Of a DNA stretch of 64,000 nt, positions 61,217 to 64,000 are shown in pieces. The stretch lies in the NCBI GenBank assembly GCA_000337115.1, contig AOIR01000059.1, positions 235,653 through 299,652 of the forward strand, read 5' to 3'. A model generated the notes under the pieces. It saw nothing but the letters and a program-made list of their open reading frames with translations, was not told the origin of the DNA and did no database searches. The DNA is from Natrinema thermotolerans DSM 11552. GTDB taxonomy: Archaea; Halobacteriota; Halobacteria; Halobacteriales; Natrialbaceae. The stretch's first letter is position 1; each line of letters opens with the position of its first letter. The position numbers and the translations under genes were made by a program.

Positions 61217-61645
61217 TCAGCCGCGGCGCTCGAGGACCCGATCGATAATCAGCCGGGTCGAGAGCAGTTGCTCGTCGTCGGTCTCTCGGGCGCTCGCACG
61301 GCGCACCTCGCAGTCGATCCCCCGCCGCTCGAGTTCGGCTGCGATGGCCTCGTCGTCGTGGTGCTGGTCGTGTCCCAGCGCGATCACGTCGGGATCGATC
61401 TCCTCGATCGGAACGAAGATGTCCTCCTCGTGGCCGAGCAGGGCCTCGTCGACGGCCTCGAGTGCGCCGACTACGTCCCGGCGCTGGGTCGCCGGACAGA
61501 TCGGCTTCTCCTTGTGATCGACGTTCGTCTTGCGGGCGACGATCACGTAGAGTTCGTCGCCCATCGCGGCGGCTTCCGCCAGGTAGTGGACGTGGCCGGG
61601 ATGGATGATGTCGAAGGTCCCCTGCGCGATGACGGTCCGGCTCAT
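61217..61645 (-). CDS. ribL: Archaeal FAD synthase RibL
   Basis: A 142-residue nucleotidyltransferase that makes FAD from FMN. The HxGH site is [10 protein letters not shown], and the C-terminal [11 protein letters not shown] is the ISSTR-like motif. The CTP/glycerol-phosphate cytidylyltransferase family is similar, but the length and the pattern in archaea fit RibL. It is convergent with the 51-residue protein gene, 18 bp apart. Confidence 0.92.
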
Positions 61646-61739: not shown

Positions 61740-62234
61740 TCATCGCAGTTCCTCGTCGATATCCGCCTGCGTGAAATCGAAGAAGTCCTCGGTCTCGGGC
61801 AGGTCGACGTCGATCACGTTCAGTCCGGTCGGCTGGCCTTTCGAATCGAACGCCTTCCAGTCGGTCCGACGGTAGGGCGCGCCGATGATGACGTGAACGC
61901 TGCCCCGACCGAAGGTGTCCAGATCGGCGTTACTCGGGCTGATGACGCCGTTCGGATGGGAGTGGATGCTACCCAACGCCTTCACGTCGTTGGGAATCTG
62001 GTTCGTCTTGACCGTCGCGCTGACGCTGTTGGACTCGGTGCCGGGCACCACGAGGATGTCCGTGATGACGAGCCCGTCACGGTCCAGTCCCAGCCGATCG
62101 GCCTCGGTCCCCCGGAGAAACCCCATGTACTCGTTCGGGTGGGTCTCCTCGGAGGACTCGAGGGCGAACTCGAGGGTTTCCTCGGCGATGCCGAGGATCT
62201 CGCTCGAGCGAAACAGCGCGTCGAACAGCCCCAT
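61740..62234 (-). CDS. JAMM/MPN+ metalloprotease
   Basis: A 164-residue MPN+ protein. The zinc site is complete: Glu in PNEYMGFL and [14 protein letters not shown] (H-x-H-P-x6-S-x2-D). JAMM proteases of archaea can remove ubiquitin-like SAMP modifiers; this one is not the only possible desampylase and its target is unknown. It is 94 bp upstream of ribL on the same strand and may be co-transcribed. Confidence 0.9.
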
Positions 62235-62306
62235 GGTCTACGCTGGGGCCTTGCGGTTGCTAAACGTTCCGATGCGCTGGTTCGGAATCGACCCGACCGA
62301 CGCCGC

Positions 62307-64000
62307 CTACTCCTTCCCGTCGGTTGCCGACCGGTCGTCGGCCGCTCGAAGGGCACGACCGAGAGACTCTCTCGAGGTCGCGTTCGCCGGGCCGTCACCC
62401 GTCGACAGTGCGGTCGCGGCCCGCGAGACGGTACGCTCGAGTGTCTCGTCGGAGCGGACGAGTCCCGCCTCGGTCGCCCTCGCGATCGAGTCGTCGACGG
62501 CGTCGATACAGGTCTCCATCGCGACCTCCGTGTCGTGGTCCGTTGCGACTTCGACGATCGCCGCCGCGTAGACCGTCACCAGAAACGTCTCCGGGTCGTC
62601 GACGAGCGACCCCGTCGCCCACCCATGAAGCGTCGAGTCGACGCAGCGACACCACGCGTCGGCTCCGTCGCGGATCGATGCAGCGACTGCGCGAGCGGAG
62701 ACGGCGACGAGTACGCTCGAGGGATCGTCGGATGCCGCGTTCGTCGCCATCACCTCCGTCCGCTCGCCGACGGCCGCCAGCCACTCGTCCGCGTTCGTCC
62801 CGTCGGCGTGTTCGCGACCGACCGCCGCGAACGCGTCGCCGTAGATCCGCTCGAGGAGAGTCGTTCGGTCGACATCGAGCCACTCGAGCGCCGACTCCGT
62901 CATCACGGTCGCCACTACTTCGCTGACCCCGAACCGGACCGCGTCGCGCTCGGCGTCGGCCGCACGCGCCAGCGCGGTGCCGAATACCGAGACCGCGTAG
63001 TCCCGCGGCCGGCACGGATTGTCCGCCGCCGTCGCCGCCGTCTCGATCTGTGACAGCACCGTCTCGACCAGCCGATCGTGCGTCCGTTCGCCGGTATCGG
63101 TTCGCGTGAGTACGGCCGCGAGGATCGCCGCGTCCGTGGCTGCGAACGCCTCGAACCACGCCGTCCGGTCTGGTTCGTCGATCGCGTCGCGACGGCTCCG
63201 GTACGACTCGACGAGGGACGCGATCCACTCGCGACTGCGGCTGGCGTCGCCCTCGTTCGCCCAGGCCACTGCCGCGTCACCGTAGACCTCGGTCAGGAAC
63301 GAGTACGGCTCTTCGACTACCTCCGTCGCCGCGACGGTCAGTCGGTCAGTAATCCCCGTCCACCAGGTATGCTCGCTGCGAGGCGTGACACCGGTCGACG
63401 AATCGGCGTCGAACCCCCGCACGTGCGCCGACAGCGCACCGCTGTAAACCGCTGCCAGATACGAGTCGAGCGTCGCTCCGGACGCGTCTGCGGCCGCCCC
63501 TCGCGTCACGGTGTCGTCGTACAACTCGAGCCAGTCCGTGAATCCGAGAGCGTCCTCGGAGGGAATCGTCTGGTGGCCGTAGGGGTAGCTCCTGACACCC
63601 TCGTGGTTGTCCTGCTCAACGGCGGCGAACGCCGCGAGGGCGTCGGCGTGGAGGGCCGCTCGGCTCTCCCACTCGTCGTCCGAGCGGTCCGACTCGGCGA
63701 CAGCGTCGACAAGCCGGTCGTAGCCCGCAAACGACAGTTCGGCCCGCTCGAGGTCGCCGTCCGCGACGATGGCGTGAACGGCCTGTCCGTACGCCTCGGA
63801 GACGAACGCGTCGGAGTCATCGATGTCCGCGAGCGCGGCGGTTCGGCGCAGACTCCGACCGACCGCCTCGAACCAGGGGCCGACCCGATCCGCTGGACAG
63901 TCGTGTTCGAACGCCCATCGTCCGATCGAGCCAACGTAGACCTGTTGTAGCATCGTCGTTTGGACGTCCGGATCGACGATCAGCGTGGCCGATTCCCTGA
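62307..64000 (-). CDS. Large helical-repeat protein (N-terminus outside window)
   Basis: The frame runs from the stop at 62307 to the right edge without interruption, so the gene is cut and the ATG at 63953 need not be the start. Counting from that ATG there are about 549 residues. A pattern of the type V-Y-G-x-A-(x) in amphipathic helices recurs at residues about 6, 55, 170, 224, 324, 371, 419 and 462, with weaker copies near 106 and 275, a spacing of roughly 45-55 residues. This suggests a solenoid of about ten helical repeats. No catalytic motif or membrane segment is visible, and I recognise no family. Confidence 0.75.
   Translation of the reverse strand, partial: RESATLIVDPDVQTTMLQQVYVGSIGRWAFEHDCPADRVGPWFEAVGRSLRRTAALADIDDSDAFVSEAYGQAVHAIVADGDLERAELSFAGYDRLVDAVAESDRSDDEWESRAALHADALAAFAAVEQDNHEGVRSYPYGHQTIPSEDALGFTDWLELYDDTVTRGAAADASGATLDSYLAAVYSGALSAHVRGFDADSSTGVTPRSEHTWWTGITDRLTVAATEVVEEPYSFLTEVYGDAAVAWANEGDASRSREWIASLVESYRSRRDAIDEPDRTAWFEAFAATDAAILAAVLTRTDTGERTHDRLVETVLSQIETAATAADNPCRPRDYAVSVFGTALARAADAERDAVRFGVSEVVATVMTESALEWLDVDRTTLLERIYGDAFAAVGREHADGTNADEWLAAVGERTEVMATNAASDDPSSVLVAVSARAVAASIRDGADAWCRCVDSTLHGWATGSLVDDPETFLVTVYAAAIVEVATDHDTEVAMETCIDAVDDSIARATEAGLVRSDETLERTVSRAATALSTGDGPANATSRESLGRALRAADDRSATDGKE

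What the first reader, a model, noticed from the sequence alone, without database searches (positions are those of the whole stretch)
62307..64000. Unrecognised solenoid of about ten 50-residue helical repeats
The V-Y-G-x-A type helix recurs at regular steps through the visible 549 residues, and the frame goes on past the window edge. No catalytic, membrane or known repeat signature fits. It may be a scaffold or effector protein of a new family.
Basis: seen in the sequence. Interest (0 to 1): 0.55.

Follow-up and report, generated by a model that had tools for sequence, protein, structure and literature searches.

The report
Mobile haloarchaeal STAND-like helical-repeat protein
A salt-loving archaeon carries a large, horizontally moving protein with a worn-down ATP-binding front half and a long coil of about sixteen helical repeats, built like the sensor proteins of cell-autonomous immunity but not yet described or tested.

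Summary
The minus-strand frame 62307-64000 is the C-terminal 563 residues of a 1390-aa protein that runs past the window edge. AlphaFold2 gives a confident all-helical solenoid (pLDDT 86, pTM 0.85) with 11 two-helix hairpins of about 50 residues; the V-Y-G-x-A motif lies in the first helix. An HMM built only from tandem repeats of distant relatives recognises the repeat (E 3.4e-5; no shuffled hit below 0.1). But the N-terminal half, outside the window, is homologous (hhalign E 3.9e-41) to haloarchaeal proteins with a STAND-type NTPase (Pfam nSTAND3 above cut-off in one). In this family the P-loops are degenerate and the winged-helix motif of the relatives is missing. The gene is patchy (27 of 391 Halobacteria), sits in a variable site between conserved genes, and elsewhere travels with other solenoid partners. 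Best reading: a horizontally mobile STAND-like sensor of a haloarchaeal conflict or defence system. Architecture is well supported; function is inferred and untested.

The parts
62307..64000 (-). C-terminal part of the 1390-aa STAND-like solenoid gene; the start codon lies beyond the window at contig C59:302131 (L002:7479)
63831..63971 (-). hairpin 1 of the visible solenoid (residues 837-883)
   Evidence: AlphaFold2 helices
63693..63815 (-). hairpin 2 (residues 889-929)
63486..63674 (-). hairpin 3, irregular, with a long loop (residues 936-998)
63318..63479 (-). hairpin 4 (residues 1001-1054)
63183..63308 (-). hairpin 5, FLTEVYGDA motif (residues 1058-1099)
63033..63167 (-). hairpin 6 (residues 1105-1149)
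62901..63008 (-). hairpin 7 (residues 1158-1193)
62736..62867 (-). hairpin 8, LLERIYGDA motif (residues 1205-1248)
62616..62723 (-). hairpin 9 (residues 1253-1288)
62469..62594 (-). hairpin 10, FLVTVYAAA motif; recognised by the relatives' repeat HMM at E 3.4e-5 (residues 1296-1337)
62322..62444 (-). hairpin 11, C-terminal (residues 1346-1386)
61740..62234 (-). conserved left flank: JAMM-type gene (annotated 'proteasome protein' in N. thermotolerans A29; the name JAMM is recalled from its sequence); the left edge of the insertion is near 62283
61217..61645 (-). conserved left flank: FAD synthase-like cytidylyltransferase

Best explanation
This is the C-terminal sensor-type solenoid of a large, horizontally mobile haloarchaeal protein built on the STAND plan: an N-terminal P-loop-like domain, a second P-loop NTPase-like domain at residues ~410-560, then about sixteen two-helix repeats. 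Shown: the repeats, the homology to STAND-like relatives, the degenerate P-loops (second P-loop GxxxSGKR or GxxxTGKR with invariant Lys but Arg in place of Ser/Thr in 13 of 13; first P-loop Lys in 3 of 13), the patchy and transferred distribution, and the linked solenoid partners in other genomes. Inferred: the solenoid binds a ligand, most likely a protein of a virus or rival mobile element. Binding would shift the nucleotide-binding module, which probably binds but hydrolyses poorly, and this would assemble a complex. The harmful or blocking output would come from a partner (HEAT or 105-aa protein next to other members) or, for the orphan window copy, from an unidentified host factor.
For: Repeats and fold. 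Homology of the family profile to STAND-like relatives at hhalign probability 100, E 3.9e-41, over 955 columns; in the other direction a profile of relatives only finds this gene in its own genome at E 5.4e-41. Of six relatives scanned, the second P-loop matches nSTAND3 in five at E<0.01 and one, L093, is above the nSTAND3 cut-off; the sixth, L092, matches AAA_16 and nSTAND5. All five relatives of A4 keep GxxGxGK(S/T) there and four keep a GN(P/A)EI motif. Patchy: 16 of 125 genomes of its family, 27 of 391 of its class. Conserved flanks but variable cargo at the same site in 28 congeners. 90-93% identity between a Natrinema member and members in another haloarchaeal family, while most members are ~45-55% alike. 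Partner linkage: HEAT protein in 8 of 391 genomes, 7 directly downstream of this family; 105-aa protein in 12 of 391, 11 in genomes with the family and 9 within 2 kb; TPR-like giant in 5 of 391, all with the family and 4 within 1 kb by ORF ends.
Against: No function was tested. The window copy has none of the three partners; its own genome had no match to any of them. The N-terminal model is poor (pLDDT 54), so the NTPase fold rests on sequence profiles. The GNPEI region of relatives has no counterpart here. In the window protein itself no STAND family reaches a cut-off; 4 of 13 members match nSTAND3 and 10 of 13 match AAA_16 at E<0.1. Neighbouring genes are mostly housekeeping: 94 pooled neighbours gave only scattered hits to defence models. 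No member in phage or viral collections, so nothing links it to viruses directly. The nearest PDB sequence matches are ordinary P-loops such as ArsA.
Confidence: 0.5

Rival explanations
1. Pseudo-NTPase scaffold: the P-loops are dead and the protein is a pure protein-binding scaffold that holds HEAT, TPR-like or host proteins together, outside defence.
For: First P-loop Lys lost in 10 of 13 members; Ser/Thr of the second P-loop replaced by Arg in 13 of 13; no GNPEI motif; the large linked partners are themselves solenoids.
Against: Lys and glycines of the second P-loop are invariant, and residues 401-560 are the best conserved region (0.66 mean pairwise identity against 0.54-0.61 elsewhere), so nucleotide binding is probably under selection.
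Confidence: 0.22
2. Accessory gene of haloarchaeal megaplasmids or secondary chromosomes (replicon upkeep, exclusion or competition between replicons) rather than antiviral defence.
For: Relatives on pHME505, pNPA200 and the TuA4 record.
Against: The window copy lies among housekeeping genes (ilvD, FAD synthase, JAMM, RecJ) as a single-gene insert absent from the same site in 28 of 28 congeners. No shared neighbour cluster beyond the named partners recurs beside most members.
Confidence: 0.15
3. Decaying or neutral insert: a transferred gene that is inactivated soon after arrival.
For: Broken copies: a 1-nt deletion in N. thermotolerans A29, an internally deleted 332-aa remnant in G064, a split gene in G042 and a degraded second copy in G054.
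Against: The window copy is intact over 1390 codons; against A29 it shows 19 synonymous and 12 non-synonymous codon changes, 19 of 31 differences at third positions; long open copies exist in most carriers.
Confidence: 0.1

Closest known systems
STAND NTPases with C-terminal repeats (NLR-like; Avs/AVAST, MalT-type)
   Same: Order of modules (N-terminal domain, P-loop NTPase, C-terminal helical superstructure), patchy mobile distribution, profile homology to proteins that match Pfam nSTAND3 or nSTAND5.
   Different: Tandem degenerate P-loops, no recognised effector domain, no GNPEI motif, an unclassified ~49-residue hairpin repeat.
Inactive STAND (iSTAND) components of ternary conflict systems (PMC7159879, passages read)
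   Same: A STAND-like NTPase judged catalytically inactive that works with partner proteins.
   Different: iSTAND is described together with MoxR and vWA proteins; the recurrent neighbours seen here are a HEAT, a TPR-like and a 105-aa protein.
HEAT/ARM-like alpha solenoids
   Same: Two-helix repeats; structural matches are designed tandem repeats, karyopherins, beta-catenin and condensin subunits.
   Different: About 49 residues per repeat; no HEAT, ARM or TPR Pfam model matches; matches of this kind are generic for repeats.
Haloarchaeal tandem-repeat relatives (L088, L090, L091, L093)
   Same: Homologous N-terminal half and the same repeat, in near-identical tandem copies at 44-50 residue steps.
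   Different: They keep a canonical P-loop and a GN(P/A)EI motif.

Membership tests
STAND NTPases | P-loop NTPase with Walker A GxxxxGK[ST] (motif recalled) | tested here: not met
   Second P-loop has GKR in 13 of 13; first P-loop has GKS in only 3 of 13.
STAND NTPases | Sequence homology to curated STAND models | tested here: inconclusive
   Window protein: no STAND model. Members: nSTAND3 in 4 of 13 at E<0.1, best 0.0013. Relatives: L093 28.3 bits against cut-off 27.2, joined to this family at hhalign E 3.9e-41.
STAND NTPases | Winged-helix region with GxP-type motif after the NTPase (motif recalled) | tested here: not met
   GN(P/A)EI motif in four of five relatives; no counterpart in the family alignment.
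STAND NTPases | C-terminal superstructure-forming repeats | tested here: met
Avs/AVAST defence systems | N-terminal effector domain (recalled) | tested here: inconclusive
   No effector family matched; PADLOC gave only mad8 at E 0.0023 over the first P-loop region and PDC-M16A at 0.017.
Avs/AVAST defence systems | Restriction of viruses | not testable with these tools
   Needs an infection assay.
HEAT/ARM/TPR repeat families | Match to the curated repeat models | tested here: not met
   No HEAT, ARM or TPR model for P0001 up to E 5.

The most novel reading that the evidence does not exclude
A haloarchaea-specific, modular, horizontally moving 'solenoid immune locus': a pseudo-STAND sensor with its own helical repeat, in which assembly with interchangeable solenoid partners (HEAT, giant TPR-like, and a 105-aa protein) has replaced ATP hydrolysis. 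It would be an archaeal NLR-like system that current defence catalogues do not name.
Probability: 0.3. Interest if true: 0.8.

Novelty: new variant of a known kind. Interest (0 to 1): 0.5.

Why it matters
Archaeal antiviral systems are called poorly characterised in a 2026 survey (PMC12988326, abstract, passages). A mobile STAND-like family with degenerate catalytic sites and linked solenoid partners would widen the NLR-like principle in archaea. Members in Haloferax and Haloarcula make it testable in tractable haloarchaea, including whether sensing can work without canonical ATP hydrolysis.

Tried and rejected
Tried without result: phmmer of the whole protein against PDB (none at E<=5); first genome-contig scan with the single protein (none); viral contigs with the alignment (none); phages by tblastn (none); PHROGs (none for P0001); viral fold library (no match at E<=0.001). 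The N-terminal structure prediction was too poor to use as a whole (pLDDT 54, pTM 0.40), so no fold search was run on it. PDB fold matches of the solenoid are generic (best VIA Z 14.2, rmsd 6.4 over 359 residues, to a designed repeat protein).

Rejected: Alginate_lyase and phosphoglycerate mutase hits (E 0.033 and 0.098, below cut-offs). Membrane protein: the most hydrophobic 19-residue stretch of P0001 averages only 1.42; relatives reach 1.9-1.95 in one segment. A defence island in the strict sense: neighbours are mostly unrelated housekeeping genes. Literature: searches listed no paper whose title or abstract start describes this family; the library is partial and most listed papers were not opened.

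Full report
Observation. The frame 62307-64000 (minus strand) is open to the window edge and is the C-terminal part of a 1390-aa ORF in the source contig. A record of Natrinema thermotolerans A29 holds the same gene at 99.1% identity in the same gene order (RecJ-like, this gene, 'proteasome protein', FAD synthase, ilvD), so the window is probably from that species or a close one (inference).

Repeats. On the family profile (13 sequences) the autocorrelation peaks include 47-48, 97, 122, 146, 194 and 217 residues; lag 47 has z 4.3, against a 95th percentile of 3.5 and a maximum of 4.27 in 300 permuted profiles. From the single sequence alone the signal is at background. The stronger test is independent: distant relatives carry tandem copies of an 'F(L/V)xNVYxMAxxxLADxY...W...' unit at 44-50 residue steps, and an HMM from 15 such units of five relatives finds the window protein at residues 1295-1335 (E 3.4e-5). 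It gives 38 hits below E 0.1 in 29 family proteins, none in 580 shuffles and none in the other neighbour genes over 250 aa. AlphaFold2 on the window part with 12 relatives gives pLDDT 86 and pTM 0.85, all helical, 11 hairpins; the end of the second model adds about five hairpins upstream. Foldseek and VIA-align find only generic HEAT/ARM-like and designed repeat proteins.

The missing N-terminus. Residues 24-36 begin LVLGAPCVGKS and residues 420-436 read IVVLTGTKASGKRRLAS. Across 13 members the first P-loop keeps Lys in 3 and the second has GKR in all 13; the Walker B-like stretches (V(I/V)(V/L)(E/D)(D/N)F and LICD) are kept. Pfam and NCBIfam give nothing above cut-off for P0001. Among 13 members AAA_16 matches 10 and nSTAND3 matches 4 at E<0.1. 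The wider search brought in seven more distant proteins (L039, L088-L093) from six other genomes. Six were scanned: the second P-loop of five matches nSTAND3 at E<0.01, once above the cut-off (L093, 28.3 bits against 27.2), and L092 matches AAA_16 and nSTAND5. hhalign of the family against five of them gives probability 100 and E 3.9e-41, and a profile of those five alone finds this gene in its own genome at E 5.4e-41. Four of those five keep a GN(P/A)EI motif after the NTPase; the family does not. The N-terminal half of the second model failed (overall pLDDT 54), so the fold of residues 1-560 is not shown.

Distribution and mobility. Members: 16 of 125 genomes of the family and 27 of 391 of the class (19 of these with E 0 matches, the rest fragments or distant relatives; list). 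Named carriers are Natrinema, Natrialba, Halovivax, Halostagnicola, Haloferax, Haloarcula and Halovenus, plus plasmids pHME505 and pNPA200 and the TuA4 record. None in phages or viral contigs. A Natrinema member (G054) is 91-93% identical to members from another haloarchaeal family while other pairs compared are mostly 45-50% alike. In the tree the window gene is alone on its branch between rows followed by the 105-aa protein and the rows among which HEAT partners occur. At the window's site all 28 congeners keep the left flank (JAMM, FAD synthase); the right flank (RecJ) was found in 26 of 28 within the fetched 1.5 kb and in the other two (G065, G076) after fetching more. None of the 28 has this gene there: the interval measures from 118 bp to about 2.2 kb and holds nothing, a MaoC-like gene, a PQQ-propeller-like gene or a VapBC-like pair, names given by eye. 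So the gene is a single-gene insert in a variable site.

Partners elsewhere. In the same 391 genomes a 651-aa HEAT protein (E<=1e-40) occurs in 8, in 7 of them 87-169 bp downstream of a member on the same strand; the eighth genome (G002) has no member. A 105-aa protein (E<=1e-8) occurs in 12; 11 of these genomes have a member, 9 within 2 kb, 7 of these immediately downstream on the same strand (in G054 next to the degraded copy). A TPR-like giant (E<=1e-60) occurs in 5, all with a member; in 4 its ORF ends within 1 kb of the member, in G183 it lies about 72 kb away on the same contig. Hypergeometric P values 2.6e-8, 2.1e-13 and 1.1e-6; I chose the thresholds and the genomes are related, so these are guides. 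Haloferax mediterranei shows a TPR-like giant next to its member as well. The window genome has none of the three.

Interpretation. Shown: a mobile, patchily distributed, STAND-related protein with a genuine helical-hairpin solenoid and worn P-loops. Inferred: ligand sensing by the solenoid, nucleotide-bound switching without efficient hydrolysis, output through partners, and a role in conflict with viruses or mobile elements. STAND proteins with C-terminal repeats as sensors, and catalytically inactive STAND versions, are described in PMC7159879 (passages read). In PMC12988326 on archaeal immunity a word search found no NLR or Avs (passages). PMC3482391 was seen in passages; other papers as listings only.

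Verdict. Observation confirmed; interpretation partly supported; a new variant of a known kind; function open.

Noticed in passing
window 62235-62306 and L002:7480-7882: The JAMM-RecJ interval is a cargo site in Natrinema: PQQ-propeller-like genes (G051, G054, G060, G063, G064, G065), a MaoC-like gene (many) and VapBC- or PIN-like ORFs (G062, G053, G065) occupy it in different genomes (names by eye).
   Followed up: partly
L088:5761-10275: A distant relative carries five near-identical 50-residue repeats in tandem, suggesting recombination-driven change of repeat number.
   Followed up: no
L038:9357-10355: A 332-aa ORF joins the first ~122 residues to the C-terminal part of the family: an internally deleted remnant.
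   Followed up: no
L083, L037, L082, L033, L128: Giant TPR-like repeat ORFs (998 to 2343 aa) of 'LDRLETLA...P' units lie beside members of this family; best Pfam match DUF6584.
   Followed up: partly
L127 (CP031304.1): A 987-kb record labelled 'plasmid unnamed6' of N. thermotolerans A29 carries ilvD, FAD synthase, RecJ-like and adenine glycosylase genes; it may be chromosome or a second chromosome rather than a plasmid.
   Followed up: no
L039 ~289-307 and L089 ~248-266 (residues): Distant relatives have a hydrophobic Gly/Ala-rich segment (19-residue mean 1.91 and 1.95) between the two P-loop domains, possibly membrane-active; weaker in the window protein (1.35).
   Followed up: partly
L086:12490-12762 and homologues: A ~90-aa protein (core '...PYSYVLL...DGEWILTFLLG') recurs near members in nine loci; no Pfam match.
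   Followed up: no
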